From the NCBI RefSeq assembly GCF_000423225.1, contig NZ_KE383991.1, forward strand, positions 506,217 to 570,216: a stretch of DNA of 64,000 nt. Reading direction: 5' to 3'. The notes beneath the pieces are model-generated. The model was not told where the DNA came from. It saw only the letters and a list, made by a program, of their open reading frames with translations, and did no database searches. Source of the DNA: Kaistia adipata DSM 17808 (GTDB taxonomy: Bacteria; Pseudomonadota; Alphaproteobacteria; Rhizobiales; Kaistiaceae). The position numbers and the translations under genes were made by a program. This document shows, one piece after another, positions 1,205 to 35,864 of the stretch; the first letter of the stretch is position 1; each line of letters begins with the position of its first letter.

Positions 1205-1233
1205 GTATTTGTCCGGACAAATGTCTTTGTCAA
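1205..1233 (-). promoter_or_regulatory. Operator A plus promoter for the leftward unit starting at 1112
   Basis: The perfect 16-bp palindrome ATTTGTCCGGACAAAT lies at 1207-1222. On the minus strand a TTGACA box (1233-1228) is followed after 17 bases by AAATAC (1210-1205), so the palindrome fills the spacer of a plausible sigma-70 promoter. The same palindrome recurs at five other promoters in the window. The reader is inferred to be the GntR protein at 23946-24707. The rest of the 370-base gap (1113-1482) holds no credible gene. Confidence 0.8.
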
Positions 1234-1452
1234 CCCGCGTAGCGACATCGATCGCCATCGCCGCCGCCGCTCGGGGAACCGATCGCGCTCACGATTGGCG
1301 AGCGCGAAACGCGGCAGGAAGGGAAGCGGAAGCGAGCCGCAAACGGGCGCGTGGCGGCGGCGCGCGCACGTGCATCGGCATCCGCCATGCGGGGCGTTTC
1401 CGGCCGCGCCGATGGCGGTCAGATCATTGCCGGCCGCGGCCAGAAAGAGGGT

Positions 1453-1486
1453 TTGAACGCGGCCGGACGGGCCGCGCTCGGTTCAA
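1453..1486 (-). terminator. Possible terminator of the 15 kb leftward operon
   Basis: A nested inverted repeat, TTGAAC at 1453-1458 with GTTCAA at 1481-1486 and CGCGGCC (1458-1464) with GGCCGCG (1470-1476), overlaps the stop codon of the crotonase gene. No long U-tract follows on the minus strand, only a pyrimidine-rich stretch, so termination is plausible but unproven. Confidence 0.4.
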
Positions 1487-2280
1487 CGGAAGCGGGGCTT
1501 CCGCTTCTCCATGAAGGACTGGAAGCCCTCCTGAAAGTCGGGGCCGGTGAAGCTCGCATCGGCGATATCAGCCGCCTCGGCGGGCGTACCGGCACCCTGG
1601 TCGACCAGCATGTTGACGATGGCCTTGGCAGCGCGGATCGAGGTCTGCGACAGCGCCGCCAGATCCTCGGCATAGTTCCGCACGACGCCCTCCAGTTCCT
1701 CCGGCGCGACGACCCGGTCGATCAGCCCGATGGCGAGCGCCTCGCCGGCCGGCAGCATGCGGCCGGAGAACAGGATGTCCTTGGCGCGCGCCGGACCGAC
1801 CTTCTCGACCAGCTGCGCCGTATCGGCGTAGCTGTAGGCAAGACCGAGCCGGGCAGGCGTGATGGCGAAACGCGCCGCCGACGAGGCAAAGCGGAGATCG
1901 CAGGCGAGCGCGATGCCGCAACCGCCGCCGACACAGATCCCGTCGACGACCGCGATCACCGGCCGCTGCAGATGGCGTAGCGCCGCCTGCCCTGCCCGCA
2001 CCGCCGCGTTGTAGGCCTCGGTCCGGCCGGCGTCGGAATAGACATCGGCGAACTCGCTGATGTCGGCGCCGGCGCTGAAGGCGCGCCCGCCGGCGCCGCG
2101 CACGAGCACGACGCGGATCGCCTCGTCCGCCGCGATCGCCGCCACCGCCTCCGGCAGCGCCGACCACATCGCCGAGGAGACGGCGTTGTGCTTCTCGGGC
2201 TGGTTCAGCTCCAGCGTCGCGACCGGGCCGGGGCCGACCAGTCGCAACTGGCCGCCGGCAAAGGCGCGCTCGCTCGTCAT
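1483..2280 (-). CDS. Enoyl-CoA hydratase/isomerase (crotonase) family protein lacking both usual catalytic glutamates
   Basis: Crotonase-fold protein of 265 residues acting on an acyl-CoA in the cytoplasm. The CoA/oxyanion-hole segment AFSAGADISEF (68-77) and the second oxyanion element VGGGCGIALACD (117-128) are clear. In true enoyl-CoA hydratases the second element reads GGGCEL and a second Glu precedes the LG of the next strand; here these positions are Gly122 and the TPARLG segment, so both acid/base glutamates are missing. Another crotonase reaction (isomerisation, thioester hydrolysis, decarboxylation or C-C cleavage) is therefore likelier than simple hydration. The ATG overlaps the stop of etfA by four bases; this is the last gene of the 13-gene leftward operon. 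Confidence 0.85.
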   Translation of the reverse strand: MTSERAFAGGQLRLVGPGPVATLELNQPEKHNAVSSAMWSALPEAVAAIAADEAIRVVLVRGAGGRAFSAGADISEFADVYSDAGRTEAYNAAVRAGQAALRHLQRPVIAVVDGICVGGGCGIALACDLRFASSAARFAITPARLGLAYSYADTAQLVEKVGPARAKDILFSGRMLPAGEALAIGLIDRVVAPEELEGVVRNYAEDLAALSQTSIRAAKAIVNMLVDQGAGTPAEAADIADASFTGPDFQEGFQSFMEKRKPRFR

Positions 2281-3212
2281 GCCAAAGCGTCCATCATCGC
2301 GGGCACCGCCGTGAACAGGTCCTCTTCGAGACCATAATCGGCGATCTGGAAGATCGGCGCATCCGGATCCTTGTTGATCGCGACGATGACCTTCGAATCC
2401 TTCATGCCAGCCAAATGCTGGATGGCGCCGGAGATGCCGAGCGCGACATAGAGCTCGGGCGCGACGATCTTGCCGGTCTGGCCGACCTGTAGATCATTCG
2501 GGGCGTAGCCGGAATCGACGGCTGCGCGCGAGGCGCCGATTGCCGCGCCAAGACGATCTGCGAGCGGCGCCACCACGGCGTCGAACTTTTCCGCCGAGCC
2601 GAGCGCGCGTCCGCCCGAAACGATGATGCGGGCCGAGCCAAGCTCCGGCCGCGTCGAGGTCGAGAGATCGGCGCCTACGAAGCGCGACGTGGAGCTTGCG
2701 GCGGGCGCGGGGAGCGCCTCGATCGGAGCGTTTGCGTCACCCGCCTCGGACGCGGGGAACGCGGCGGCGCGGATCGTCAGCACGCGCTTCGCCTCGTCGG
2801 AGCGCACCGTTTCCAGCGCGTTTCCGGCATAGATCGGGCGCTCGAAGGTGTCGGCGGCAAGGACCTTCGTCACATCGGAAATCTGCATGACGTCGAGGCG
2901 AGCGGCGACGCGCGGCAGGGCATTCTTCATGGCGGAGGTCGCGGGCGCCGCGATCACCGTGTAGGCGTCGGTGATGCGGATGACGAGTTCCGCCAGCGGC
3001 TCGGCCAGCAGGTTGGCGAGCACCGCCCCCTCCGCGACAAGAACCCGGGCAACGCCCGCGAGCGACGCCGCCTGGGCTGCGATCGCCGCGACGCCATCAC
3101 CGGCAACGAGGACGTCGACCGGCGCGCCGATCTGCCGGGCGGCCGTCAGAGCCTTCGCCGTAGCGTCGCCGAGCCGGACGCCGTCATGGTCTGCGATCAG
3201 AAGCGTGGCCAT
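2277..3212 (-). CDS. etfA: Electron transfer flavoprotein alpha subunit
   Basis: FAD-carrying subunit of the ETF heterodimer (311 residues), which takes electrons from acyl-CoA dehydrogenases and passes them to ETF-quinone oxidoreductase (not encoded here). The C-terminal FAD domain is canonical: [35 protein letters not shown] and the end segment [16 protein letters not shown]. It lies three bases after etfB. The local partners are most likely the two acyl-CoA dehydrogenases at 20230 and 30840, which share the same operator type. This would be a substrate-specific ETF copy, since most such genomes carry a second housekeeping one. Confidence 0.95.
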
Positions 3213-3214
3213 GG

Positions 3215-3961
3215 TCAGATTACTCCCGCCGTCTTGAGTTTTTGCACGAGTTCGGCCGCCGAAGCGACCTTGATGCCCGCCTGGCGGCCGGACGGTTCCC
3301 GCGTCGAGACGATCTCCAGCCGCGGCGTCGCGTCGACGCCGAGCGCCTCCGGCGTCGTCTCGTCGAGCGGCTTCTTCTTCGCCTTCATGATGTTGGGCAG
3401 CGAGGCATAGCGCGGCTCGTTCAGGCGCAGATCCGTCGTCACGACGGCCGGCAGCGCCAGGCTCACCGTCTGAAGGCCGCCATCGACCTCGCGCGTCACC
3501 TCGACCTGGCCGCCGTCGACGGCGACCTTGGAAGCGAAGGTGCCCTGCGGCCAGTCGAGCAGCGCCGCCAGCATCTGGCCCGTCTGGTTGGAATCATCGT
3601 CGATCGCCTGCTTGCCGAGGATGACCAGGCCGGGCTCCTCGCGGGCGACGATCGCCTTCAGGAGCTTGGCGACGGCAAGCGGCTCGACCCGGCCCTCGGC
3701 CTTCACCAGGATGCCGCGATCGGCGCCCATGGCGAGCGCGGTGCGGATCGTCTCCGCCGCGCTGGCAGCACCGACTGAGACGACGATGATCTCGCTCGCC
3801 TTGCCGGCCTCCTTGAGGCGCAGCGCCTCCTCGACGGCGATCTCGTCGAACGGGTTCATCGCCATCTTCACATTGGCGAGCTCGACGCCGGAGGCGTCGG
3901 CCTTGACCCGGATCTTGATATTGGCGTCGACCACCCGCTTCACGGGCACGATGATTTTCAT
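3215..3961 (-). CDS. etfB: Electron transfer flavoprotein beta subunit
   Basis: AMP-binding partner of EtfA, 248 residues from the chosen ATG at 3961. Family members begin [12 protein letters not shown], exactly the sequence here; an upstream in-frame ATG at 3967 sits only a couple of bases from the AAAGGA ribosome site, whereas 3961 has about eight bases of spacing. Further markers are [17 protein letters not shown] and [14 protein letters not shown]. It is preceded by the serine hydrolase gene (21-base gap) and followed by etfA. Confidence 0.95.
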
Positions 3962-3982
3962 GGGCATGGTCCTTTGGGAGGA

Positions 3983-5134
3983 TCAGAGACAATCGTAGAG
4001 AGCGGCAACGAGGCGGCGGCTGCGGTCGGAAGACCCCATGCCGGGCGCCATCCGGGCCGTGACGAAACCGACGGCGAGATCCGCTTCCGGATCGGCGAAG
4101 GCGAAGGCGCCGCCGGCGCCCCAATGGCCGACGGCATCCGCCGAGGGACCGAAATCGAACGAGGGCGGCAGCGACAGTTCCAGCCCCTCGGCGAGCCGGA
4201 TCGGCACGCCCAACACCGGGTCGTCGCCCAGACTGCGGGTGCGCTCGGTCCGGGCCGCGCGCTTGCGCTCCGGCGACAGAAAGACGGCCTTTCGACCGAA
4301 GACGCCGAAGATGCGGGCGAGCCCCGTCGCGGTCGCGTGGCCGCTGCCGGAGCCGATCGTCGCCCGGCGCCAGCGATCACTGTTGAAGTCCTCGCCGGAG
4401 GCAAACCCGGCCATCGAGCGCGAAAACAGGCTGTCCGGCTCGGCCTCGAGGGTTCGGAACAACGATCCGGGGTCGTCCTGCCGCATGCGCGCCGCGCGGC
4501 GGATGTCAGGATCGGAAAGGGCAAAGCCGAAATCGGCCCCGAGCGGCGCGGCCACCTCCGCCGCCACGAGATCGGCGAGCGGCCGGCCGGTCGCGCGCCG
4601 CAGGATCTCGCCGAGCAGATAGCCATAGGTCATGTTGTGATAGGCGGGCCGACCATCGAGTGGCACGACCGGAGCCGAGCGCGCCAGCGCGTCCGTCATG
4701 GTGAACCAGTCGTAGAGATCCCCCGCCGCCAGCGGCACCGAGACCGCAGGCAAGCCAGCGCGATGCGTCAGGACATCGGCGACCGTGATGTCGGCCTTGC
4801 CGTTCGCTGCGAATTCCGGCCAGAGATGTCGGACGGGCGCATCGAGGTCGACGCGACCTTGGTCGACAAGCCGGTGTGCCAGGATCGACAGCACGCCCTT
4901 CGAGACGGAGAAGCAGCAGGCAAGCGTATCGTGGCGCCAGTCGCGGCCATTGGCGGCATCCGCCACGCCTCCATGGATCTCGACCACCGGCCGGCCGGAA
5001 GCGAGCACGGTGAGCGCCGCGCCGGTTTCCTCGCCCGAGGCCAGCATCGCGGCCAGCGTGTCGGCGACGCGCGCGAAGGCAGGATCGAACCGGCCAGAGA
5101 GACGGGGCGACAGGGTCGCCTCGACCATCGTCAT
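3983..5134 (-). CDS. Serine hydrolase of the beta-lactamase class C / esterase EstB family
   Basis: 383-residue hydrolase of the penicillin-binding-protein fold. Visible motifs are SVSK (Ser76 to Lys79, the SxxK nucleophile pair), PAYHNMTYG (the Y-x-N element) and GHWGAGG near the C-terminus (the K/H-T-G equivalent). No signal peptide is present, so it is probably cytoplasmic and more likely an esterase or amidase than a beta-lactamase. Its ATG overlaps the stop of the preceding GMC oxidoreductase gene by four bases, placing it firmly in the catabolic operon. Inference: it hydrolyses an ester or amide bond in the imported substrate or an intermediate. Confidence 0.85.
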   Translation of the reverse strand: MTMVEATLSPRLSGRFDPAFARVADTLAAMLASGEETGAALTVLASGRPVVEIHGGVADAANGRDWRHDTLACCFSVSKGVLSILAHRLVDQGRVDLDAPVRHLWPEFAANGKADITVADVLTHRAGLPAVSVPLAAGDLYDWFTMTDALARSAPVVPLDGRPAYHNMTYGYLLGEILRRATGRPLADLVAAEVAAPLGADFGFALSDPDIRRAARMRQDDPGSLFRTLEAEPDSLFSRSMAGFASGEDFNSDRWRRATIGSGSGHATATGLARIFGVFGRKAVFLSPERKRAARTERTRSLGDDPVLGVPIRLAEGLELSLPPSFDFGPSADAVGHWGAGGAFAFADPEADLAVGFVTARMAPGMGSSDRSRRLVAALYDCL

Positions 5135-6756
5135 GGCGCCAGCACCGCCGGCGCCAGCGCGGGCCGGCCGAGGATCATGTCGGCGGCCTTCTCCGCGATC
5201 ATCATGGTCGGCGCCGAGGTGTTGCCGCCGACGATGGTGGGCATCACAGAGGCGTCGACGACGCGGAGACCGCGCACGCCGCGCACCTTGAGCTCGCCGT
5301 CGACGACCGAGCCTTCGTCACTGCCCATGCGGCAGGTGCCGACGGGATGGAAGATCGTGTTGGCGCCGGCGCGCACCCAGGCGTCGATGGCGTCATCGTC
5401 GCGCAGATCCGTTGTGACGGGCGAGATCTCGCCGGCGTCATGGCGGGCGAGCGCCGGGCTGGCGCCGATCCGGCGGGCGAGGCGGACACCGTCGCGCATG
5501 CAGCGGCGGTCCGCCTCGGCTTCGAGATAGTTGGGCTCGATCGTCGGCGCGACGGTCGGATCGACGCCCGCGATCTGCACCGTGCCCCGGCTTTCCGGCC
5601 GCAGCTGGTAGAAGTTGATCAGATAGCCGTGCTGCCCCTGCCCCGCCCGCGTCGTCTCCAGGTTGAGACCGGGCACGAAGGTGATGTGGATGTCGGGAAT
5701 GTCGAGTTCGGGCCGCGTCTTCAGGAACCCGCCGGCCTCGAGCGGGATCGAGGTCGCCGGGCCCGTTCCGAACAGCAGCGCTCGGAGGCCTGCCGAGATC
5801 GCGCGATCCGGCCGGAACAGCGAATAGAGCGTGATCGGCTCCTTGCAGCGATATTTGAGGTAGACGCCAAGATGGTCCTGCAGATTGCGGCCGACCTCCC
5901 GGTTCTCGACGCGCGGCGTCACGCCGGCCCGCTTCAGCGCCTCGGGATCGCCGATGCCGGAGAGCTGCAGCAATTGCGGCGAGTTGATCGTGCCGCCGGA
6001 CAGGATGACCTCGCGCTTGGCCGTGACGCGGACCGGCGTGCCGTTGCGGGTCAGCTCCAGCCCGGTGGCGCGGCCATTCTCGAGGATGACCTTGGTCGCC
6101 AGCGCCCGCGTCCAGACCGTCAGGTTGTCGCGCCCCATCGCCGGGCGCAGGAACGCCGTCGCCGTGCTTTCGCGCCGGCCGTTGCGGATGTTGAAATCAT
6201 AGAGGCCGAGGCCTTCCTGGTCCGGCCCGTTGAAATCGTCATTGGCGACGAAGCCCTCGGCGAGACCCGCCTTCAGGAATTCGCCATAGAGCGGGTTCTC
6301 GCCCTTCGCCTTGACGACGGCGAGCGGTCCGGTCGTGCCGTGATAGGCATCGGCCGGGCGCTCGAGATGGCCTTCCGAGCGCCGGAAATAAGGAAGAATG
6401 TCGGCATAGCCCCAGCCGGGCAGCCCCTGGCCCGCCCAGGTGTCGTAGTCGGCGCGATGGCCGCGCATATACATCATGCCGTTGATCGAGGACGATCCGC
6501 CGAGCACTTTTCCACGCGGCCAGTTGACGGCGCGGCCGTCGAGATGCGCCTGCGGCGTCGTCGCGTAGTTCCAGTTGATCGACTTCCAGAAGTAAATCAG
6601 GCCGGAAACCATCGGCACCTTGATCAGCGGATTGCTGTCGGCGCCGCCGGCCTCCAGCAGCAACACAGAATGCTTGCCGTCTTCGGACAGGCTATTGGCC
6701 AGCACGCAGCCGGCGGAGCCGGCTCCGACGACGATATAGTCAAAACTCTGCGTCAT
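5131..6756 (-). CDS. GMC family FAD oxidoreductase (choline dehydrogenase-like)
   Basis: Flavin-dependent alcohol dehydrogenase/oxidase of 541 residues. The FAD Rossmann motif GAGSAGCVLANSL is at the N-terminus, the GMC signature WPRGKVLGGSSSINGMMYMRG lies near residue 80-100, and the C-terminal active-site pair is the His in FHPVGTCRMG and the Asn in VGGNTSAPTMM. Start chosen at the ATG at 6756; a TTG five codons upstream is possible but less likely. Same operon as a second, different GMC enzyme at 7976-9589; 15 bases separate it from the SDR gene upstream. It probably oxidises a primary alcohol of the substrate. Confidence 0.9.
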   Translation of the reverse strand: MTQSFDYIVVGAGSAGCVLANSLSEDGKHSVLLLEAGGADSNPLIKVPMVSGLIYFWKSINWNYATTPQAHLDGRAVNWPRGKVLGGSSSINGMMYMRGHRADYDTWAGQGLPGWGYADILPYFRRSEGHLERPADAYHGTTGPLAVVKAKGENPLYGEFLKAGLAEGFVANDDFNGPDQEGLGLYDFNIRNGRRESTATAFLRPAMGRDNLTVWTRALATKVILENGRATGLELTRNGTPVRVTAKREVILSGGTINSPQLLQLSGIGDPEALKRAGVTPRVENREVGRNLQDHLGVYLKYRCKEPITLYSLFRPDRAISAGLRALLFGTGPATSIPLEAGGFLKTRPELDIPDIHITFVPGLNLETTRAGQGQHGYLINFYQLRPESRGTVQIAGVDPTVAPTIEPNYLEAEADRRCMRDGVRLARRIGASPALARHDAGEISPVTTDLRDDDAIDAWVRAGANTIFHPVGTCRMGSDEGSVVDGELKVRGVRGLRVVDASVMPTIVGGNTSAPTMMIAEKAADMILGRPALAPAVLAP

Positions 6757-6771
6757 TCTGCTCTTGCTCAA

Positions 6772-7545
6772 TCAGTACGGGAATTCGGCGCCGTTCATGG
6801 CGATGGCCTGGCCACTGACATACTCGGCCTCGTCGCTGGCAAGCCAGGAAACCGTCGCCGCGACATCGTCCGGCGTGCCGAACCGGCCCCAGGGCACGGT
6901 GGCGCGGAAGCCTTCGATGACCTCGTCCGGCGTCTTGCCGGTGACGCGGGCAAAGCCGGAGGCGATGCCACCCCAGAACGGCGTCTCGATATGGCCCGGC
7001 ACATAGGTGTTGGCGCGGATCCGATGCGGCGCCAACTCGACCGCCAGCGACTGCGTCAGCATGATGATCGCGGCCTTGGAGGCGCAGTAGTGCGAGAGGT
7101 TCGGCACGCCGCGCCGCCCGGCGCCCGAAGCGGCGTTAATGATCGCGCCGCCCCTGCCCTGCGCGATCATCTGGCGCGCCGCGGCACGCGATCCGAGGAA
7201 GACGCTGTCGACATTGATGCCGACGACGCGCTGCCATTCGGAAAGCGGCATGTCGATGACGGGACCGACGGCGATCACACCGGCATTGCAGACCATGACG
7301 TCCAGGCCGCCGAAACGCGCCGCCGTCTCGGCCACCGCCACATCGACGGTCGCCTCGTCGGTGGCGTCGCCCACGAGGCTCAGGAATCGCCCCGCCGCTT
7401 CGGGCTTGTCGATGGAGGCGAGATCGAGCACGGCGACCGAGGCGCCCTCGCCGAGAAAGCGCTCGACGATGCCGAGGCCGATGCCACTGGCGCCGCCGGT
7501 GACCAGCACGCCCTTGCCGGCGTGACGCTCGCAATCGCGGATCAT
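6772..7545 (-). CDS. Short-chain dehydrogenase/reductase (SDR)
   Basis: 257-residue classical SDR using NAD(P)H. The cofactor motif TGGASGIGLGI (residues 16-26), the CNAGV element, the active-site Ser in NAASGAG and the Y-x-x-x-K in HYCASKAAI are all present, and the C-terminus VSGQAIAMNGAEFPY is family-typical. An Asp at the end of strand beta-2 (VLDLAS) favours NAD+ over NADP+. The ATG overlaps the stop of the small dehydrogenase subunit upstream by four bases. Likely role: oxidation of a secondary alcohol or hydroxyacyl intermediate. Confidence 0.9.
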   Translation of the reverse strand: MIRDCERHAGKGVLVTGGASGIGLGIVERFLGEGASVAVLDLASIDKPEAAGRFLSLVGDATDEATVDVAVAETAARFGGLDVMVCNAGVIAVGPVIDMPLSEWQRVVGINVDSVFLGSRAAARQMIAQGRGGAIINAASGAGRRGVPNLSHYCASKAAIIMLTQSLAVELAPHRIRANTYVPGHIETPFWGGIASGFARVTGKTPDEVIEGFRATVPWGRFGTPDDVAATVSWLASDEAEYVSGQAIAMNGAEFPY

Positions 7546-7979
7546 GAGGAACTTCCCGTGCCGGCATCGCGATATTGCGGCCCGCGCGAGGCAGGGACCG
7601 CGACGATCGCGGGATCGAAACGTTTCAGCGCATAGCCTTCTGGCTGCGGTGCGCGGGCGGCATAGCCGGACGCCCGCTCGACGGCGGCGAGCACCGTCGG
7701 ATGGACGTAATAGAGACTATAGAGCGCCACCACGAACGGGTCGAAGACGGCAGCCTTCTCCCGCTCGACGCTCTCGACGACGGCGATCTGCGCCTCCTTC
7801 GGTCGGGTGGAGAAATCCGCGGGCAAGGCCGCGATCATCGCCTCGGCCATGGCGCCGAAGCGCTCATGCGTCACCATTGCATCGGCCAGTTCGATCCGGC
7901 TCGGCGGCGGGAAGTCCGCGTCGCCCGGGATCATCCGGTCGAGCAGAACCGCGAGAGAAGTGCGATCGATGCTTGTCAT
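7542..7979 (-). CDS. Small subunit of a GMC-type dehydrogenase (gluconate 2-dehydrogenase subunit 3-like)
   Basis: 145-residue protein starting at the ATG at 7979, which overlaps the stop codon of the GMC large subunit (ATGA). The N-terminal RTSLAVLLDRMIPGDADFPP pattern is the hallmark of gluconate 2-dehydrogenase subunit 3-like proteins, which pair with GMC flavoprotein subunits. Relatives often carry a Tat leader; none is seen here, so the complex may stay in the cytoplasm. Position and overlap suggest it is the obligate partner of the enzyme encoded at 7976-9589. Confidence 0.7.
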   Translation of the reverse strand: MTSIDRTSLAVLLDRMIPGDADFPPPSRIELADAMVTHERFGAMAEAMIAALPADFSTRPKEAQIAVVESVEREKAAVFDPFVVALYSLYYVHPTVLAAVERASGYAARAPQPEGYALKRFDPAIVAVPASRGPQYRDAGTGSSS

Positions 7980-13371: not shown

Positions 13372-13425
13372 GGGCCGACCCTCGGCGGGAAAGAGGCAGA
13401 CCGAAACCGGCCTGCCTCCTTCGGA

Positions 13426-15243: not shown

Positions 15244-15292
15244 AATCGGCTAGCCTGGGATGTTTCGGGCAGAAATCGCAGTGGAGGTCGGT

Positions 15293-17321: not shown

Positions 17322-17333
17322 GGAATTCGCATC

Positions 17334-18732: not shown

Positions 18733-18792
18733 ATTTGTCCGGACAAATCATTTGACAAGCCTCTTTGCGTCCTCTTATTTGTCCGGACAAAT
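18733..18792 (+). promoter_or_regulatory. Tandem operators D and E around the promoter of the CitE-MaoC-ACAD-CaiB operon
   Basis: Two perfect ATTTGTCCGGACAAAT palindromes, at 18733-18748 and 18777-18792, flank a consensus-like promoter: TTGACA at 18752-18757, a 17-base spacer and TTATTT at 18775-18780. One operator sits just upstream of the -35 box and the other overlaps the -10 box; starts are 44 bp apart. Confidence 0.85.
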
Positions 18793-18831
18793 TTGACGCA
18801 TACGGCACTCTGCAGGAGATGCGGTCCCATC

Positions 18832-19674
18832 ATGCGCGCGCGCAGAACCCTACTTTTCGCTCCCGGAAACCGCATCGAGGTGCACGCCAAGGCGCTGGCC
18901 ACGGGCGCCGACGTCGTTTGTCTCGACCTCGAGGACGCGGTGCCGCCGGCCCTGAAGGCAGAGGCGCGCGCCGCCGCGATCCCCTTCCTCGCCGATGTCG
19001 CAGGCCCGGAGCGGGTGCTCCGCATCAACAGCCCGCGCAGCGCCGAAGGCCTGCGCGATCTGCTCGCCGTCATCGAGGCGCGACCGGCCGCCGGCGTGAT
19101 CTTCCTGCCCAAGGTCGACACGGCCGACGAGGTGCGCTGGGTCGCCGGGCTGCTCGCCGAAGCAGGGCTGGACCTCGGTCTCGCCGTGCTGATCGAAAGC
19201 GTCGAAGGCCTCGAGAACGTCGCCTCGATCCTCACCGCCAGCGACCGGATCGAGTTCGCCATGTTCGGCGGCGCGGACCTGTCGGCCGAGCTCGGCGTCG
19301 CGATTGCGCCCGAGCCACTGCTCTATGCCCGCTCGCGGGTCGTGCACGCGGCCAAGCTCGCCGGCGTCGACGTGTTCGATGTGCCGAGCCTGGCCTTCCG
19401 CGACGCGGAGATCGTCCGCGCCGAATCCGTCGCCGCCAAGGCGCTCGGCTTCACCGGCAAGGGCGTGCTGCACCCCGCCAATGTCGCCGTGGTGAACGAG
19501 GTGTTCGCCCCGACGACCGACGAGATCGCACAGGCCGAGCGGGTCATCGCCGCCTATCGCGCCAGCCCGACCGGCCTCGCCGTGCTCGACGGCAAGCTCG
19601 TCGAGCGGCCGGTGGTGCGTGCCATGGAGCGCATCCTGGCGCTCCGCGATTCCTTCCAGAACAAGAACCAGTGA
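18832..19674 (+). CDS. CoA-ester lyase of the HpcH/HpaI (CitE-like) family
   Basis: 280-residue TIM-barrel lyase, the fold of citramalyl-CoA, malyl-CoA and citryl-CoA lyases. RRTLLFAPGNR at the N-terminus, the acidic metal-site segment CLDLEDAVPP, the RINSPRS strand, FLPKVD, IESVEGLEN, FGGADLSAELG and the C-terminal GFTGKGVLHPAN are all present. It cleaves a 3-hydroxyacyl-CoA into acetyl-CoA (or similar) plus a 2-oxo compound. Start at the ATG at 18832; AGGAG lies 14 bases upstream, wider than normal. First gene behind operators D/E; followed by the MaoC gene, the same pair seen in itaconate degradation. Confidence 0.88.
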   Translation: MRARRTLLFAPGNRIEVHAKALATGADVVCLDLEDAVPPALKAEARAAAIPFLADVAGPERVLRINSPRSAEGLRDLLAVIEARPAAGVIFLPKVDTADEVRWVAGLLAEAGLDLGLAVLIESVEGLENVASILTASDRIEFAMFGGADLSAELGVAIAPEPLLYARSRVVHAAKLAGVDVFDVPSLAFRDAEIVRAESVAAKALGFTGKGVLHPANVAVVNEVFAPTTDEIAQAERVIAAYRASPTGLAVLDGKLVERPVVRAMERILALRDSFQNKNQ

Positions 19675-19688
19675 GAAGAGCCAAGACG

Positions 19689-20207
19689 ATGGTCGTGACA
19701 ATCAAGGAAGTCGGTCCCAATCGCTACCGCGAGAGCTTCGGTCGCTATTTCGAGGACTTCAACGAAGGCGACATCTACGAGCATCGCCCCGGCCGGACGA
19801 TCACCGAGACGGAGAACACTTGGTTCACGCTGCTGACGATGAACACCCATCCGATGCATTTCGACGCCGAATACGCCAAGCACAGCGAGTTCGGCCGCTG
19901 CATCATCTGCTCGCCCTTCACCGTCGCGCTGATGGTGGGCATGAGCGTCACCGACGTCAGCCAGAAGGCGATCGCCAATCTCGGCTGGAGCGAGATCAAG
20001 CTCACCTTCCCGCTCTTCGCCGGCGACACTCTGGTGGCGGAATCGGAGGTGCTCGGCAAGCGCGAGAGCAAGTCGCGCCCGAATGCCGGCATCGTCACGG
20101 TGAAGACGCGCGGCTTCAACCAGGACGAGAAGCTGATCTGCGAGTTCGAGCGCACCATGCTGATCGCCAAGCGCGGTTTCGATGTCGAGGAGAAGGCGCG
20201 CTACTGA
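19689..20207 (+). CDS. MaoC-like enoyl-CoA hydratase (mesaconyl-/itaconyl-CoA hydratase type)
   Basis: 172-residue hotdog-fold hydratase. The N-terminal RYFEDFNEGDIYEHRPGRTI and TMNTHPMHFDAEYAKHSEFG contain the family Asp/His catalytic region. The hydratase adds water across the double bond of a 2-enoyl-CoA to yield the substrate of the adjacent CitE-like lyase; itaconyl- or mesaconyl-CoA hydratases of this type sit beside such lyases in known C5-dicarboxylate pathways. Start at the ATG at 19689, 14 bases after the lyase gene. Confidence 0.88.
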   Translation: MVVTIKEVGPNRYRESFGRYFEDFNEGDIYEHRPGRTITETENTWFTLLTMNTHPMHFDAEYAKHSEFGRCIICSPFTVALMVGMSVTDVSQKAIANLGWSEIKLTFPLFAGDTLVAESEVLGKRESKSRPNAGIVTVKTRGFNQDEKLICEFERTMLIAKRGFDVEEKARY

Positions 20208-20229
20208 CGCGCCGGAAGAGGAACGCCCC

Positions 20230-21396
20230 ATGTCCAACGCCTCCCCTTCGGACCTCTCGTCCGACGACCAGATGATCCTCGAAGCGATCGAGAAGTGGCT
20301 CGAGCGCGACGTGCGCCCGCATGTGCTGCGGCTCGACCATGCGGATGAGTATCCGCAGGAGATGGTCGAGCAAATGAAGGAGCTCGGCCTGTTCGGCGCG
20401 ACGATTCCCGCTGAATATGGCGGCCTCGGCCTGTCGGCGACGACCTACGCCAAGATCGTCGAGAAAATCGCCGCCACCTGGATGTCGCTCGGCGGCGTCA
20501 TCAACTCGCACCTGATCATGTCGGCCTGCGTGACCCGCGTCGGCACCGAGGCGCAGAAGCAGAAATACCTGCCGCGCTTCGCCACGGGCGAGTTGCGTGG
20601 CGGCCTGGCCCTGACCGAGCCCGACGCCGGCACCGACCTGCAGGCGATCCGGACCCGCGCCGTGCGCGACGGCGACCACTATGTCGTCAACGGCGCCAAG
20701 ACCTGGATCACCAACGGCATCCACGGTTCCTGCTTCGCGCTGCTGGTGAAGACGAACCCCGACGCCGACCCGCGCCACAAGGGCATGTCGATGCTGATCG
20801 CCGAGAAGGGCGAAGGCTTCAACGTGTCGCGCAAGCTGGAGAAGCTCGGCTACAAGGGCATCGACAGCGCCGAGCTGAGCTTCGAGAACTATCGCGTGCC
20901 CGTCGAGAACCTGATCGGCGGCGAAGAGGGCCGTGGCATGCAGACGGCGCTCGGCGGCCTCGAGCTCGGCCGCATCAACATCGCGGCGCGCGGCTGCGGT
21001 CTCGCCGGGGCGGCGCTGATGGACAGCGTCCACTACGCCCAGCAGCGCAAGACCTTCGGCAAGCCGATCGGTCAGCACCAGGCGATCCAGCTGAAGCTCG
21101 GCGAGATGGCGACCCGCCTGCAGGCTGCCCGCCTGCTGACCTACGACGCCGCCCGCGCCTATGACCGCGGTGAGCGCTGCGACATGGAAGCCGGCATGGC
21201 GAAGTATTTCGCCTCGGAGGCGGCGGTGGAGAACTCGCTGGAGGCCATGCGCATCCACGGCGCCTATGGCTATTCCAAGGAGTACCATATCGAGCGCTAT
21301 TTCCGGGACGCGCCGCTGATGTGCATCGGCGAAGGCACCAACGAGATCCAGCGCATGATCATCGCCAAGCAGATGATGGAAAGGAACCCGGCGTGA
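20230..21396 (+). CDS. Acyl-CoA dehydrogenase
   Basis: 388-residue FAD enzyme introducing a 2,3 double bond into an acyl-CoA and donating electrons to ETF. Start at the ATG at 20230 after GGAAGAGGAACG. Visible: GGLGLSATTY, LTEPDAGTDLQAIRTRA (flavin region), QQRKTFGKPIGQHQAIQ, IHGAYGYSKEYHIERYFRDA, and the C-terminal GEGTNEIQR with the Glu that acts as catalytic base in medium/short-chain enzymes. The next gene starts on a GTG inside its stop (GTGA). By context it would make the substrate of the MaoC hydratase. Confidence 0.93.
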   Translation: MSNASPSDLSSDDQMILEAIEKWLERDVRPHVLRLDHADEYPQEMVEQMKELGLFGATIPAEYGGLGLSATTYAKIVEKIAATWMSLGGVINSHLIMSACVTRVGTEAQKQKYLPRFATGELRGGLALTEPDAGTDLQAIRTRAVRDGDHYVVNGAKTWITNGIHGSCFALLVKTNPDADPRHKGMSMLIAEKGEGFNVSRKLEKLGYKGIDSAELSFENYRVPVENLIGGEEGRGMQTALGGLELGRINIAARGCGLAGAALMDSVHYAQQRKTFGKPIGQHQAIQLKLGEMATRLQAARLLTYDAARAYDRGERCDMEAGMAKYFASEAAVENSLEAMRIHGAYGYSKEYHIERYFRDAPLMCIGEGTNEIQRMIIAKQMMERNPA

Positions 21397-22646
21397 CCCT
21401 GACGGCGACGAGAAACGATGCGGCTCCGAGCGGCTTCGGCATCGCCGAACCGCCGCTCAAGGGCATCCGGATCATCGCCGCCGAGCAATATGGCGCCGGT
21501 CCCTTCGCGACCATGTACCTCTCGGACATGGGCGCGGAGGTGATCAAGATCGAGCCGCCGGCGACGGGAAAGGGACCGGCCGGCGACAGCTCGCGCCAGT
21601 CGGGCCCCTATTTCCTCGGCGAGAACGACAGCCAGTTCTTCCAGACCTTTAACCTCGGCAAGAAGAGCCTGACGCTCGACCTGCGCAAGCCGGAGGGCCA
21701 GGCGGTGCTGCACCGCCTCGTCGCCGGCGCCGACGCCGTGCTGAACAATCTGCGCGGCGACCAGCCAGCCAAGCTCGGCCTGACGCATACGGCGCTGGCG
21801 AAGGTGAAGCCGTCGATCGTCTGCGCCCATCTCTCCGGCTATGGCCGCGAGGGCGAGCGCGCCAACTGGCCCGCCTATGATTATCTGATGCAGGCGGAAG
21901 CCGGCTTCCTGTCGCTGACCGGCGAACCGGACGGCGCCCCCACCCGCATGGGCCTGTCGATCGTCGACTACCTGACCGGCATCACCACCGCCTTCGCCCT
22001 GACGGCGGCGCTGCTCGGGGCGGCCCGGACCGGCCGTGGCCGCGATGTCGACGTGACGCTCTATGACGTCGCCATGCACCAGCTGACCTATCCGGCCACC
22101 TGGTATCTGAACGAGAGCGTCGAGACGACTCGCCGGCCGCGCTCCGGCCATCCGTCCGTCGTGCCCTGCGAGACCTTCCCGACCAGCGACGGCCGCATCT
22201 TCATCATGTGCATCCTGCCGAAGTTCTGGGAGAAGCTCTGCGAACTGACAGGCCTGGGCGAGCTCGTCGAGGATCCGCGCTTCCGCTCCAACAAGAACCG
22301 CTACGACAACCGCGAGGCGCTGATCGCCCTCCTCGACGCGGCGCTTTCGACGCGCTCGACGGGCGAATGGATGGCGCGCTTCTCCGGCCAGCTCCCGGCA
22401 GCGCCCGTCCTCGGCATGGGGGCGGCGCTCGACAATCCCTATTTCCGCGCGACCGGCGGCGTGCAGTCGGTCGACCATACGGCGCGCGACGGCCTGCAGG
22501 TGCTCTCCAATCCGATCCGGCTCGACGGCCGCCGCGCCGAGGCCCGGTCCGGTCCCGGCCTCGGCCAGCATACGGACGAGATCCTCGCCGGGATCGGCTA
22601 CGGCCCCGACGAGATCGCCAGGCTGCGCGCCGAACAGACCATCTGA
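21393..22646 (+). CDS. CaiB/BaiF family (class III) CoA-transferase, first copy
   Basis: 417-residue class III CoA-transferase, activating a carboxylic acid by transfer of CoA from a donor thioester. GTG start at 21393 within the stop of the dehydrogenase gene. Markers: PLKGIRIIAAEQYGAGPFAT, LSDMGAEVIKIEPP, FFQTFNLGKKSLTLDLRKPEG, WPAYDYLMQAEAG (region of the catalytic Asp) and GRGRDVDVTLYDVAMHQL. An N-terminal extension of about 20 residues precedes the domain. The second copy follows after 17 bases; the two are too different to be a recent duplication and may form a heteromer or act on different acids. Confidence 0.92.
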   Translation: MTLTATRNDAAPSGFGIAEPPLKGIRIIAAEQYGAGPFATMYLSDMGAEVIKIEPPATGKGPAGDSSRQSGPYFLGENDSQFFQTFNLGKKSLTLDLRKPEGQAVLHRLVAGADAVLNNLRGDQPAKLGLTHTALAKVKPSIVCAHLSGYGREGERANWPAYDYLMQAEAGFLSLTGEPDGAPTRMGLSIVDYLTGITTAFALTAALLGAARTGRGRDVDVTLYDVAMHQLTYPATWYLNESVETTRRPRSGHPSVVPCETFPTSDGRIFIMCILPKFWEKLCELTGLGELVEDPRFRSNKNRYDNREALIALLDAALSTRSTGEWMARFSGQLPAAPVLGMGAALDNPYFRATGGVQSVDHTARDGLQVLSNPIRLDGRRAEARSGPGLGQHTDEILAGIGYGPDEIARLRAEQTI

Positions 22647-22663
22647 CCAACGAGGTCCATGCC

Positions 22664-23827
22664 ATGAAGCTCGAAGGTCTCCGCGTCCTCGACCTGTCGC
22701 TGTTCCTGCCCGGCCCGATGCTGACCCAGACCATGGCCGACCATGGCGCCGAGGTCATCAAGATCGAGCCGCCCGGCGAGGGAGAGCCTGTCAGAAATGT
22801 CGGCTACCGTACCTCCGACGGCGTCAGCGTCTGGTTCCGCAACACGCATCGCGGCAAGAAGAGCATCGTGCTCGACTTCAAGAGCCCGGCTGGCGTCGCC
22901 GCCTTCCTCAGGCTCTGCGAGACCGCCGACGTCGTCGTGGAAGCGTTCCGTCCCGGCGTCGTCGACCGGCTCGGCGTCGGTTATGACGCGGTGTCGAAGG
23001 TCAATCCCCGCATCGTCTACGCCTCGATCTCGGCCTTCGGCCAGACCGGCCCGGAGGTGAAGCGGCCGGCGCACGACATCGCCATCGAGGCGCTTGCCGG
23101 CGTCGTCAGCCTCAATCTCGGCGGCGACGGCCAACCGACCAACCCCCACATGCCGGTCGCCGACATGGCCGGCTCGATGACCGCCTTCGCCGGCATCCTG
23201 ATGGCGCTGCTCCGGCGCGAGAAGACCGGCCGCGGCGACTATCTCGACATCTCGATGCAGGATTCCACCATGGCGTGGCTTCCGAACGTCACCGGACCGG
23301 TATTCGCCGAGGACCGCGCCCCGCGCGTCAAGGAAGAGCGCTCCTTCGGCGGCTATGCCTTCTTCTCGGTCTACGAGACGGCGGACCATCGCCATGTCGT
23401 GCTCGGCGGCGTCGAGCACAAATTCGTCCGCAACCTGCTGAATGCGCTAGAACGGCCCGACCTGATCCCGCTCGCCGAGGGGCCGCCGGGGCCGACGCAG
23501 GAGCCGGTCCAGCAGTTCCTGCGCGCGACCTTCGCGATGAAGACCCGCGCCGAATGGGAAGCCTGGTTCGCCGACAAGGATGTCTGCTTCGCGCCTGTCC
23601 TCGACCTGCACGAGGCCTTCCACCAGCCGCACATCGCGGCACGCGAGATGTTGCACCGCGATGTGGACGGCAATCTGCACATCGGCACGCCGATCCGCTA
23701 TCGCGACGAGCCCGGCCGGCTCGACACCACCCTGCCCGCCCTCGGCGAGCATACGGCCGAGGTGCTGCGACAAGCCGGGCTCGACGATGCGGCCATAGCC
23801 GAGATCCTGGCCGGACGGCGGGGCTAG
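22664..23827 (+). CDS. CaiB/BaiF family (class III) CoA-transferase, second copy
   Basis: 387-residue class III CoA-transferase. MKLEGLRVLDLSLFLPGPMLTQ, MADHGAEVIKIEPPGEGEP, WFRNTHRGKKSIVLDFKSPAG, RPAHDIAIEALAG (catalytic Asp region) and GRGDYLDISMQDS mark the fold. Last gene of the operon from 18832; two hairpins follow before the converging GntR gene. Donor and acceptor acids cannot be read from the sequence. Confidence 0.92.
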   Translation: MKLEGLRVLDLSLFLPGPMLTQTMADHGAEVIKIEPPGEGEPVRNVGYRTSDGVSVWFRNTHRGKKSIVLDFKSPAGVAAFLRLCETADVVVEAFRPGVVDRLGVGYDAVSKVNPRIVYASISAFGQTGPEVKRPAHDIAIEALAGVVSLNLGGDGQPTNPHMPVADMAGSMTAFAGILMALLRREKTGRGDYLDISMQDSTMAWLPNVTGPVFAEDRAPRVKEERSFGGYAFFSVYETADHRHVVLGGVEHKFVRNLLNALERPDLIPLAEGPPGPTQEPVQQFLRATFAMKTRAEWEAWFADKDVCFAPVLDLHEAFHQPHIAAREMLHRDVDGNLHIGTPIRYRDEPGRLDTTLPALGEHTAEVLRQAGLDDAAIAEILAGRRG

Positions 23828-23930: not shown

Positions 23931-23934
23931 GCTG

Positions 23935-23959
23935 AAGGCTGGGCCTCAGACCCAGCCTT
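23935..23959. terminator. GC-rich hairpin between converging operons
   Basis: AAGGCTGGG (23935-23943), a seven-base loop and CCCAGCCTT (23951-23959), then TCGCG on the plus strand. The stop codon of the GntR gene (23946-23948) lies in the loop, so the last codons of that gene form one arm. Likely bidirectional terminator for the CaiB operon and the gntR unit. Confidence 0.65.
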
Positions 23960-24707
23960 TCGCGCCCTCGCGACGCAGATGCATCGAATAGGAGAAGCGG
24001 TCGGCCGGGTGATAGTTGACCGAGATCTGCAGAATCTTGCCGTCCTCGCCGAAATAGCGACGGATGACGCGGACGGCCCAGATCCGCGTCGACGAGCCCA
24101 GCAGCTTGGCGGCGTATTTGCCCATCGGCTCGGCCCGGATCTCCTGCTCGACATCCTCCACCGTGACGCCGTAGCGCTGCTCGATCAGCCGGAAGATCGT
24201 GCCGCCGACGCTCGGCAGATCGCCGGCGATGCCTTCGAACTCGCGATTGATGAAGACGCGCGAAAAGGCGATCGGCGTGCGGCCGTCCGCCTCGAGGCGC
24301 ACGCCCTCGACATAAAGCCAGGGCTCATCGGCCGTCTCGCCAAGATAGGGCTGCACCTCCGGCTCCGGCACCTGCATCTCGACCGCGGTGATCTTGAACA
24401 CCGTGTCGGACGCATACTGGAACAACTCGCTGAGCGAGCGCATCGAATGGACGAAATTGGCCGGCACCTTGTTGGCGACGACCTGGCTCCCCGAGCCCTG
24501 CCGGCGGCGCACCAGTCCCGCCTCGGTGAGCCGGCGCAGCGCTTCGCGGATGGTGTAGCGGCTGACGTCGAACTCGGCGCAGAGGTCCTGCTCGGTCGGC
24601 AGCAGGTCGCCGATCGCATATTTTCCGAGCTCGATGCGCTCGGTCAGGATGTTGCTGATCTGGTGATAGCGCGGCAGATCGCCTGCGGCGGTCGCGGGCT
24701 TGCTCAT
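23946..24707 (-). CDS. GntR family transcriptional regulator, HutC/FarR subfamily (UTRA domain)
   Basis: 253-residue regulator with an N-terminal winged helix (about 12-80; recognition helix around SRYTIREAL, 49-57; wing RRRQGSGSQV) and a C-terminal UTRA ligand-binding domain (about 95-245, ending SVNYHPADRFSYSMHLRR). HutC-type proteins bind palindromes of the GT-N4-AC class; the six ATTTGTCCGGACAAAT-type sites in this island fit. It is the only GntR protein here and lies inside the island, so I infer it is the island repressor, released by a pathway intermediate. Its ATG overlaps the CoA-transferase stop by four bases, so site F would make it autoregulated. Confidence 0.93.
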   Translation of the reverse strand: MSKPATAAGDLPRYHQISNILTERIELGKYAIGDLLPTEQDLCAEFDVSRYTIREALRRLTEAGLVRRRQGSGSQVVANKVPANFVHSMRSLSELFQYASDTVFKITAVEMQVPEPEVQPYLGETADEPWLYVEGVRLEADGRTPIAFSRVFINREFEGIAGDLPSVGGTIFRLIEQRYGVTVEDVEQEIRAEPMGKYAAKLLGSSTRIWAVRVIRRYFGEDGKILQISVNYHPADRFSYSMHLRREGAKGWV

Positions 24708-25975
24708 GACGCCATGCCCCCTGTCCGCTGCATCGCATGCCAGTCATCGGCTAGCTGGTCCCGGAACTGCGGCGCGGCGATCGCGATCAGCCGTTCGGCG
24801 CGCTCGGCGACGCTCGCCCGGCGCAGATCGGCAACGCCATGCTCGGTGACGACGCAGTCGACATCGGTTCGCGAAACGCCGGCCGCCACGCCCGTCGGCA
24901 GCGCTGGCACGATGCGGCTGCGCCGGCCACCTTCGGCGCTCGCCGGCAGCGCGAGCCAAGAGCGCCCGCCCGAGGAGGCGCGCGCGCCACGAACGAAATC
25001 GACCATGCCACCCAGCCCGCTTACCTGGCGCCCGCCCAAGAATTCGGCGTTCGCCTGTCCCAATAAATCCACCTCGATCACCGAGTTGATGCTGATGAAG
25101 CGCTCGATTCGCGACAAGTGTCCAATCGCATGTGTCTCGCCAACTGGCCGGAAGCGCAATTGCGGCAGTGCACGCGCCCGTTCGTAGAGCACGGAACTAC
25201 CCAGGGCGACGCCAGTCGTGATGCCTTTCGAGAACACCCCGCGATCGATCAGCGGCAGGATCGGATCGGAGATCATGCCGCTGTGGAAGCCGAGGTCGCG
25301 ATGGTCGATGAGCGCGTCCAGAACCGCCTGCTGCATCTTGCCGAGACCGAGCTGGATCGTGTCGCCCTCGCGGATCAGCCCCGCGATGCGGACGCCGATG
25401 GCGTCGATCACCGGGTCGCGGCGACCGGAATCATAGGTGATCAGCGGCGCCGCCGCATCGACGAAGGCGGAAAAGCGCTCCACCGGGACGCGCGGGCCGT
25501 CGACGACATCCGGCATATCCGGGTTGATCTGACCGACGAGGCGGGCGCCCGCCTGAACCGGTGCCGGCGAGAAATCGGCAGCAACGCCGAAGCCGACCGT
25601 GCCGTCAGCGCGTGGCGGCGGCACCTGGAAATAGGCGACATCGACACGCCCGGGCTCGGCCAGGTGACGGTAGAGTTCGGTATAGTGCGCCGGCCAGATC
25701 GCGACAGTTCCGGCCGATTGTCCAGGACGCAATCCCTCGGCAGCGAAAATGCTGCGCGCGACGGTCTCGTGACCGATCGCCGAGAGATCGCGGCGATTGA
25801 CACCCGGGATATAGGCGCCCAGCAATTCGACGCCGCGCCAGAGATCCGGCTCGGCCGAAACCGCGTCGAGGATCGCGCCCGGCTCGCCGCAGCACCCGGC
25901 CAGGTAGACCCGCGCACCGGGCGGCGCGAGGGCCGCCGCCTCTCGCGCCGAGAGCTTGGGGATTGAACGCACCAC
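24704..25975 (-). CDS. Acetyl-CoA hydrolase / 4-hydroxybutyrate CoA-transferase family protein
   Basis: Class I CoA-transferase of about 424 residues. I prefer the GTG at 25975, which follows GAAGGTG at normal spacing; the frame extends to a TTG at 26029 with no ribosome site. Domain markers: PGARVYLAGCCGEPGAILDAV, the N-terminal domain end, QLGLGKMQQAVLDAL, HSGMISD, and SINSVIEVDLLGQANAE, whose Glu (IEVDL) is the residue that forms the glutamyl-CoA intermediate. GGRQVSGLGGMVDFVRGA closes the fold. Itaconate CoA-transferase (RipA) belongs to this family, and MaoC and CitE partners are in the same island. Co-transcribed with the GntR gene. Confidence 0.9.
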   Translation of the reverse strand: MVRSIPKLSAREAAALAPPGARVYLAGCCGEPGAILDAVSAEPDLWRGVELLGAYIPGVNRRDLSAIGHETVARSIFAAEGLRPGQSAGTVAIWPAHYTELYRHLAEPGRVDVAYFQVPPPRADGTVGFGVAADFSPAPVQAGARLVGQINPDMPDVVDGPRVPVERFSAFVDAAAPLITYDSGRRDPVIDAIGVRIAGLIREGDTIQLGLGKMQQAVLDALIDHRDLGFHSGMISDPILPLIDRGVFSKGITTGVALGSSVLYERARALPQLRFRPVGETHAIGHLSRIERFISINSVIEVDLLGQANAEFLGGRQVSGLGGMVDFVRGARASSGGRSWLALPASAEGGRRSRIVPALPTGVAAGVSRTDVDCVVTEHGVADLRRASVAERAERLIAIAAPQFRDQLADDWHAMQRTGGMAS

Positions 25976-26021
25976 CAGATTTTCACCTTCGATTCCAGGT
26001 GCCGAACCGCTGTATTCGCAC

Positions 26022-26062
26022 TTGCACAACGACCGAGCCTGGGTAAATATGTCCGGACAAAT
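26022..26062. promoter_or_regulatory. Operator F between the divergent CoA-transferase/gntR and MmgE/PaaK units
   Basis: ATATGTCCGGACAAAT at 26047-26062 differs from the other sites at one base. On the plus strand TTGCAC (26022-26027), a 17-base spacer and AAATAT (26045-26050) form a promoter whose -10 overlaps the operator. On the minus strand GTGACC and TATTTA flank the palindrome at 17 bases, a weaker candidate for the CoA-transferase/gntR unit. One site could therefore control both directions. Confidence 0.75.
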
Positions 26063-35859: not shown

Positions 35860-35864
35860 GACCG

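What the first reader, a model, noticed from the sequence alone, without database searches (positions are those of the whole stretch)
1207..26062. Six copies of a 16-bp palindrome define a GntR regulon confined to one catabolic island
ATTTGTCCGGACAAAT is perfect at 1207, 15128, 15228, 18733 and 18777 and has one mismatch at 26047. Every copy lies at the head of a transcription unit, none inside genes or in the 32-64 kb part. By chance a 16-mer should not recur once. The only GntR/HutC regulator (23946-24707) is inside the island, and HutC proteins use GT-N4-AC palindromes. Five or more units, about 27 genes, would respond to one signal.
Basis: partly seen in the sequence, partly recalled or inferred. 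Interest (0 to 1): 0.8.

Follow-up and report, generated by a model that had tools for sequence, protein, structure and literature searches.

The report
One repressor's palindromes control an island
Six near-identical 16-letter palindromes mark the start points of six gene groups in one nutrient-degradation island of a Kaistia bacterium, and the same palindromes tend to accompany the same regulator gene and the same pathway genes in distant relatives, so they are very probably the docking sites of that one regulator: a clear new example of a well-known kind of gene switch.

Summary
In detail: ATTTGTCCGGACAAAT occurs five times perfectly and once with one mismatch, outside identified genes. Elsewhere in the 4.84-Mb genome only one non-palindromic place lies within two mismatches. 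All six lie in a 36.8-kb block shared with Kaistia terrae and head six inferred units, about 33 genes. The GntR was found in 2 of 14 genomes of the genus.

Pairing with the GntR/HutC regulator (23946-24707) is strongly supported. Of 385 alphaproteobacterial genomes, 11 have two or more sites; 8 of these are among the 14 with a close relative of this GntR, and 2 more have it at 37-38% identity. Of 45 core sites counted in relatives' loci, 36 head a homologue of an island gene and none lies well inside one. GT-N4-AC spacing and recognition residues fit HutC rules and resemble AraR.

Sites overlap promoter-like boxes (read by eye) conserved with K. terrae, so repression is likely; two sites 44 bp apart sandwich one promoter. 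The one-base 'mismatch' recurs at 9 of 11 related promoters. Binding, inducer and substrate are untested. A new member of a known kind; my searches found no report of it.

The parts
1207..1222 (.). operator 1 (perfect), in the -35/-10 spacer of the unit-1 promoter (minus strand; TTGACA 1233-1228, AAATAC 1210-1205, read by eye)
   Evidence: operator and both boxes identical in K. terrae
15128..15143 (.). operator 2 (perfect), promoter of unit 2 (minus strand; TTGACA 15170-15165, spacer 18-19, read by eye)
15228..15243 (.). operator 3 (perfect), overlaps -10 of unit 3 (TTGACA 15202-15207, GACATT 15225-15230, read by eye)
18733..18748 (.). operator 4 (perfect), just upstream of the unit-4 -35 box
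18777..18792 (.). operator 5 (perfect), overlaps -10 of unit 4 (TTGACA 18752-18757, TTATTT 18775-18780, read by eye); 44 bp from operator 4, the same spacing as in K. terrae
26047..26062 (.). operator 6 (ATATGTCCGGACAAAT), between the divergent CoA-transferase/gntR and MmgE2 units; overlaps a -10 AAATAT 26045-26050 (-35 TTGCAC 26022-26027) of unit 6, read by eye; no boxes assigned for unit 5
   Evidence: the variant is at 9 of 11 related MmgE2 promoters
23946..24707 (-). gntR: HutC-type regulator (GntR winged helix + UTRA)
   Evidence: Pfam GntR 1e-20, UTRA 6.4e-16; only DNA-binding regulator among the island ORFs scanned
24704..26029 (-). acetyl-CoA hydrolase/transferase-family CoA-transferase, operon with gntR (unit 5)
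1..1112 (-). unit 1: oligopeptide-type solute-binding protein, followed beyond the window by two permeases and two ATPases
   Evidence: tblastn 88% to K. terrae
1483..15099 (-). unit 2 (12 genes): solute-binding protein, two permeases, fused ATPase, GMC oxidoreductase, small unknown protein, SDR, GMC oxidoreductase, beta-lactamase-fold esterase, ETF beta, ETF alpha, enoyl-CoA hydratase
15260..18722 (+). unit 3 (4 genes): HapK-like protein, SDR, PuuE/allantoinase-like hydrolase, MmgE/PrpD protein 1
18832..23827 (+). unit 4 (5 genes): CitE/RipC-like lyase, MaoC/mesaconyl-CoA-hydratase-like protein, acyl-CoA dehydrogenase, two CaiB-type CoA-transferases
26105..32576 (+). unit 6 (5 genes): MmgE/PrpD protein 2, PaaK-like CoA ligase, amidase, GAF-domain protein, acyl-CoA dehydrogenase 2

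Best explanation
The palindrome is the operator of the island's own GntR/HutC-family regulator. A dimer of the regulator very probably binds each site and blocks RNA polymerase at the promoters of six units, including its own divergent pair (CoA-transferase-gntR and MmgE2). A pathway metabolite bound by the UTRA domain would release it and switch on uptake and breakdown together. One promoter (unit 4) is sandwiched by two operators 44 bp apart, suggesting tighter, cooperative repression; the two sites 100 bp apart more likely serve their own divergent promoters. Shown: presence, near-confinement, co-occurrence of site and regulator, site position over promoter-like boxes that are conserved with K. 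terrae for five of the six units (none assigned for unit 5). Inferred: the promoters themselves, binding, repression rather than activation, cooperativity, inducer, substrate.
For: Near-confinement in the genome. All six sites lie in the block syntenic with K. terrae, window -4209 to 32557, and all six 16-mers are identical there while much of the flanking sequence diverged. Regulator at E<=1e-40 in 2 of 14 genomes of the genus; the other one carries the same six sites. Order sample (347 genomes): two or more sites in 3 of 6 genomes with GntR at E<=1e-50 and 0 of 341 without, Fisher p 2.9e-6. Class sample (385): 8 of 14 with GntR at E<=1e-45 (5 genera), 3 of 371 without, p 4e-11; two of those three exceptions have the GntR at 37-38% identity and the pathway genes. 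Reversed-pattern controls: matches in 1 of 347 and 4 of 385 genomes, never two in one. In 25 fetched stretches 36 of 45 cores head a homologue of an island gene, against 12.7% of background positions, and 0 of 45 lie more than 60 bp inside a mapped homologue. In G519 sites at distant loci follow the genes. Arg50 is kept in 20 of 20 homologues and residue 40 is Arg in 0 of 20, matching G at -4 and T at -5 by the NagR contacts (PMC4333415, passages).
Against: No binding or expression data. The strict sigma-70 scan of 14.9-26.3 kb found 0 promoters (shuffles: mean 1.2); the boxes were read by eye, their -10 hexamers are weak, and none was assigned for unit 5. 6 of 14 class genomes with the GntR have no site at <=1 mismatch, and 3 of 6 order genomes have fewer than two. 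6 of 20 homologue neighbourhoods (up to 1.5 kb each side) show no site, and some homologues have altered sites (TTGTCTGGACAA, TTGTACGGACAA, TTGTTCGAACAA). 9 of 45 cores head no recognised homologue, and two further cores in the G015 stretches were left out of that count. One perfect core on C3 lies outside the island. A 31%-identical GntR in G015 also has a core site nearby, so the core is not exclusive to this group. Sampled genomes are not independent, only up to 7 GntR candidates per genome were scored, and the loci were chosen for GntR or sites.
Confidence: 0.88

Rival explanations
1. The palindromes are operators of the same GntR, but it acts wholly or partly as an activator.
For: Operator 4 lies just upstream of a -35-like box, a place also used by activators; the -10 boxes are weak and the strict scan found none.
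Against: Five of six sites overlap the spacer or -10 region as read by eye, where bound protein would hinder polymerase; NagR and AraR are described as repressors (passages).
Confidence: 0.07
2. A different regulator, encoded elsewhere, binds the palindrome; GntR merely travels with the island.
For: Binding is untested; IclR (37364-38413) and LysR (39464-40360) regulators lie nearby; a perfect core lies outside the island.
Against: GntR is the only DNA-binding regulator among the island ORFs scanned. IclR and LysR lie outside the block shared with K. terrae and gave no listed match in the 80 kb fetched there. Sites co-occur with GntR relatives across families. Spacing and recognition residues fit HutC rules. 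I did not scan the relatives' loci for other regulators.
Confidence: 0.05
3. The copies are a repeat of mobile or structural origin (duplicated promoter fragments, transposon ends) without a regulatory role.
For: Five copies are letter-identical; the regulator gene is found in only 2 of 14 genomes of the genus.
Against: Much of the flanking sequence has diverged from K. terrae while the 16-mers and promoter-like boxes are kept; relatives with rearranged islands have sites at gene heads.
Confidence: 0.01

Closest known systems
AraR of Bacillus subtilis (GntR-type DNA-binding domain; its LacI-type sensor is recalled)
   Same: Consensus At(T/A)tGTaCGTAcaa(A/T)T (PMC4218819, passages) differs from this operator only at the two bases flanking the central CG, and allows T or A at position 3, where operator 6 has A; no Arg at the residue-40 position, Arg in the recognition helix; paired boxes give cooperative, high-level repression.
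   Different: Sensor domain here is UTRA; arabinose regulon; I did not test orthology. The spacing of AraR box pairs could not be checked.
NagR/YvoA of Bacillus subtilis (GntR/HutC)
   Same: Full-length sequence match to solved NagR/YvoA; palindrome with GT-N4-AC; repressor of uptake and catabolism (PMC4333415, passages).
   Different: NagR reads G at -5 with Arg38; here residue 40 is Gln and position -5 is T; centre CCGG rather than CTAG.
HutC-subfamily regulons reconstructed by comparative genomics (Suvorova et al. 2015, PMC4494728; abstract, passages and sections 11 and 14 seen)
   Same: GT-N4-AC palindromes, divergent promoters, single and double sites.
   Different: I did not see their supplementary motif list, so whether this group is among their 64 orthologous groups is unknown.
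ripABC itaconate degradation and mesaconyl-CoA hydratase-type steps
   Same: CitE/RipC-like and MaoC/RipB-like genes with CaiB transferases and an acyl-CoA dehydrogenase; MaoC protein passes the Pfam mesaconyl-CoA hydratase cut-off.
   Different: Scores lie below the curated cut-offs of RipB and RipC; extra amidase, PuuE-like and MmgE/PrpD genes.

Membership tests
GntR family, HutC subfamily | N-terminal GntR winged helix plus C-terminal UTRA domain | tested here: met
   Pfam GntR 73.6 bits (cut-off 27), UTRA 58.9 bits (cut-off 23.8)
GntR family, HutC subfamily | Palindromic operator with GT-N4-AC | tested here: met
   GT-CCGG-AC in all six copies, as candidate operators; subfamily rule from PMC4494728
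GntR family, HutC subfamily | Regulator binds the operator and an effector releases it | not testable with these tools
   needs binding assays
HutC/TreR/PhnF named equivalogs | Score above the curated cut-off of a named equivalog | tested here: not met
   TreR 90.5 of 211.95, HutC 81 of 220, PhnF 69.7 of 156.8 bits
Local regulon (operator, cognate regulator, target units) | Sites concentrated at target promoters and conserved with the regulator | tested here: met
   exceptions: a perfect core on C3 and GntR-bearing genomes without sites
AraR-type cooperative double operator | Two in-phase operators at one promoter with cooperative binding | tested here: inconclusive
   44-bp spacing (about 4.2 turns) in the window and in K. 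terrae; cooperativity not testable
ripABC itaconate pathway | RipB and RipC above curated cut-offs | tested here: not met
   RipC 211.1 of 375, RipB 236.2 of 340 bits

The most novel reading that the evidence does not exclude
An undescribed alphaproteobacterial GntR/HutC regulon with AraR-like operators governs an undescribed pathway in which a cyclic imide or similar ring is opened by the PuuE-like hydrolase, deamidated by the amidase, moved to CoA by the CaiB transferases and cleaved through mesaconyl-/citramalyl-CoA-like steps to acetyl-CoA and a 2-oxoacid. The regulon is a compact island in Kaistia and dispersed in other genomes while keeping the same operator, including a recurrent one-base departure at the regulator's own divergent promoter that serves the -10 box.
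Probability: 0.35. Interest if true: 0.55.

Novelty: new member of a known kind. Interest (0 to 1): 0.4.

Why it matters
It ties about 33 genes of unknown substrate to one regulator and one operator, so the substrate can be sought by asking which compound releases this repressor. The same operator acts as a searchable tag for scattered pathway genes in other Alphaproteobacteria. The strict operator identity, the sandwiched promoter and the recurrent one-base departure over a -10 box also make a tidy case of how operator and promoter share bases.

Tried and rejected
Scattered copies: not borne out by whole-genome searches. Another local regulator (IclR, LysR): outside the shared block and no listed match in 80 kb of K. 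terrae sequence. A non-regulatory repeat: disfavoured by flank divergence. Motif in print: full-text searches for TTGTCCGGACAA and shorter pieces gave papers that look unrelated by title: one search listed its 1 paper; one search listed 20 of 51 (31 not seen). Pathway in print: a search for MmgE, PrpD, CaiB, GntR, gene cluster, degradation listed 2 papers, unrelated by title and abstract start. Kaistia/catabolic/GntR: 15 of 412 listed, none on this regulon by title; GntR/HutC regulon papers: 20 of 31 listed. The AraR looping paper (PMC95308) is not held, so I did not confirm the spacing of AraR box pairs. The strict sigma-70 scan gave no hit.

A mistake corrected: the 'MaoC' query was a wrong-frame ORF (19619-20275); one search showed this, and searches use the right frame. 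MaoC identities should be ignored; the site count rose from 33 of 45 to 36 of 45, in which the CaiB2 query was also trimmed at its start. One search used 25 of the 29 stretches fetched by place from relatives; left out were L023 and L026 (K. terrae, no core with <=1 mismatch) and L050 and L051 (G015, one core each). Its 34 queries include 5 window genes beyond the island, none of which was counted as a head.
Full report
What is there. ATTTGTCCGGACAAAT is at the five stated places without mismatch, and ATATGTCCGGACAAAT is at 26047. The window lies at contig C1:506217-570216 of a 4.84-Mb, 12-contig genome, 98.9% complete. Allowing two mismatches, the genome holds these six and one non-palindromic place on C4; the reversed-pattern control gives none. 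Allowing one mismatch in the 12-bp core TTGTCCGGACAA gives nine places: the six, a perfect core at C3:565961 with flanks that do not match, and one 1-mismatch place each on C5 and C6. The C3 core lies between divergent ORFs; that one is autotransporter-like and the other a phosphorylase-type enzyme is my reading of the sequence, not scanned.

The island. Blastn (E<=1e-20, pieces over 150 bp) shows one block shared with K. terrae in the same gene order from window position -4209 to 32557, and nothing beyond it in the sequence compared (76 kb of own sequence against 80 kb of the K. terrae contig). The GntR is present at E<=1e-40 in 2 of 14 genomes of the genus and 2 of 28 of the family. Of 17 further genomes searched with the palindrome at <=2 mismatches (13 of the genus, 4 of the family), K. 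terrae has the same six sites, including the same one-mismatch copy; G015 has two and G019 one 2-mismatch match, the other 14 none; the reversed control matched once in each of two genomes. The six sites head six units: a dipeptide-type ABC operon running out of the window to the left; a 12-gene minus-strand operon (transporter, two GMC oxidoreductases, SDR, esterase, ETF, enoyl-CoA hydratase); a 4-gene plus-strand operon (HapK-like, SDR, PuuE-like, MmgE/PrpD); a 5-gene operon (CitE-like, MaoC-like, acyl-CoA dehydrogenase, two CaiB); the CoA-transferase-gntR operon; and a 5-gene operon (MmgE/PrpD, PaaK-like, amidase, GAF, acyl-CoA dehydrogenase). Operon limits are inferred from orientation and spacing.

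Regulator and motif go together. In 347 genomes of the order, the palindrome (<=1 mismatch) occurs in 13 and twice or more in 3 (own genome, G203, G263); all 3 are among the 6 genomes with the GntR at E<=1e-50. In 385 genomes of the class it occurs in 25 and twice or more in 11; 8 of these 11, from 5 genera, are among the 14 with the GntR at E<=1e-45. Two of the other three (G532, G627, one genus) proved to have the GntR at 37-38% identity within the same gene set; G534, a 0.9-Mb genome, stays unexplained. Fisher p values were 2.9e-6 and 4e-11; genomes are not phylogenetically independent and only up to 7 GntR candidates per genome were scored, so these are indicative. The reversed pattern matched in 1 of 347 and 4 of 385 genomes, never twice in one. 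Against: 6 of the 14 class genomes have no site at <=1 mismatch and 3 of the 6 order genomes have fewer than two; 6 of 20 homologue neighbourhoods show none, and some show altered palindromes. The sites of G504 and one of the two of G372 were not followed to their genes.

Sites follow genes. In 25 fetched stretches of relatives (18 locus groups; 25 of the 29 held) there are 45 cores with <=1 mismatch. Of these, 36 lie from 300 bp upstream to 20 bp inside the start of a homologue (tblastn E<=1e-10) of an island gene, and none lies more than 60 bp inside a mapped homologue; background positions do so at 12.7% and 35.7%. Some homologues, as in G114, are only about 30-36% identical and may be paralogues. 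The stretches were chosen for GntR or sites, so the comparison is within chosen loci. MmgE2 (11), CoA-transferase (8), CitE (7), GntR (5), PuuE (4) and acyl-CoA dehydrogenase (4) are the usual targets. In G519 one site lies at the CoA-transferase-gntR / MmgE2 divergent promoter and others about 530 kb away before PuuE and the acyl-CoA dehydrogenase. This dispersal argues for a trans-acting factor rather than shared local history.

Promoter geometry. Against K. terrae the six 16-mers are unchanged while much of the surrounding spacer has diverged. The alignments also keep promoter-like boxes: unit 1 TTGACA 1233-1228 and AAATAC 1210-1205 (minus strand); unit 3 TTGACA 15202-15207 and GACATT 15225-15230; unit 4 TTGACA 18752-18757 and TTATTT 18775-18780; unit 6 TTGCAC 26022-26027 and AAATAT 26045-26050, all with 17-bp spacers; unit 2 TTGACA 15170-15165 with a spacer of 18-19. 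I read these by eye and assigned none for unit 5; a strict scan of 14.9-26.3 kb gave none. In unit 4 operators 4 and 5 (44 bp apart, 44 in K. terrae) enclose the promoter; operators 2 and 3 are 100 bp apart (101 in K. terrae).

The odd copy. ATATGTCC..., with the A on the upstream side seen from MmgE2, stands at the MmgE2 promoter in 9 of 11 relatives' loci: K. terrae, G203, G391, G425, G519, G532, G550, G616, G627 (three of these share one genus and two another; six families with the window's). G263 and the second G532 locus have a perfect core there. The same variant also occurs before other genes, for instance CitE in G532 and G627, and near CitE in G263 in the opposite sense. In Kaistia the A completes AAATAT. 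So the 'mismatch' looks selected, probably for promoter strength, but that is inference and not peculiar to this promoter.

Recognition. Suvorova et al. state that most HutC sites have 4 nt between GT and AC and that Arg at HTH position 28 goes with G/C (PMC4494728). In NagR, Arg48 reads G-4 and Arg38 reads G-5 (PMC4333415, passages). Here the operator has G at -4 and T at -5; the protein has Arg50 and Gln40 at the matching places. Among 20 homologues Arg50 is kept in 20 and residue 40 is Arg in 0; residue 51 is Tyr, His or Phe in 20. AraR, whose DNA-binding domain also lacks Arg there, has the consensus At(T/A)tGTaCGTAcaa(A/T)T and represses strongly through paired boxes (PMC4218819, passages). 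The match is a rule-of-thumb fit, not proof.

Pathway. The MaoC protein hits Pfam mesaconyl-CoA hydratase above its cut-off and RipB, and the lyase hits RipC, the latter two below their curated cut-offs. With CaiB transferases and an acyl-CoA dehydrogenase this suggests diacid activation, oxidation, hydration and cleavage. The PuuE-like protein matches solved PuuE allantoinase but scores below the curated PuuE cut-off (267 of 425 bits); a related cyclic imidase followed by an amidase works in fungal nicotinate breakdown (PMC9304392, passages). I therefore guess at a cyclic imide or similar ring as substrate, with low confidence (about 0.3).

Verdict. It is a well-supported new member of a known kind: a GntR/HutC local regulon. 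Binding, repression and effector remain to be shown.

Noticed in passing
G000 contig C3:565961-565972 (locus L054, about 5962): A perfect core TTGTCCGGACAA with non-matching flanks between two divergent ORFs, outside the island; chance or an extra target.
   Followed up: partly
L050 (G015:C2:216793) and GntR at G015:C2:215678-216397: Another genome of the genus, without this GntR, has a 31%-identical GntR with a TTTTGTCCGGACAAAC palindrome about 400 bp from it, so the core may serve a wider clade of GntR paralogues.
   Followed up: partly
window 7542-7979, minus strand: Small unknown protein between GMC oxidoreductase and SDR genes, 60% identical in K. terrae (longer ORF); no Pfam match.
   Followed up: partly
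window 30247-30843, plus strand: GAF-domain-only protein with relatives in the G203 and G263 loci (48-49%); no DNA-binding domain found; role unknown.
   Followed up: no
window 33076-44113: Beyond the island: FAD-dependent oxidoreductase, ABC transporter parts, IclR and LysR regulators, phosphoribosyltransferase, molybdopterin-binding-domain protein; outside the block shared with K. terrae.
   Followed up: no
L086 (G532), L089 (G627), L091 (G532 second locus): A second GntR (29% identical) sits near the enoyl-CoA hydratase gene in these loci, with PuuE-like genes beside it in G532.
   Followed up: no
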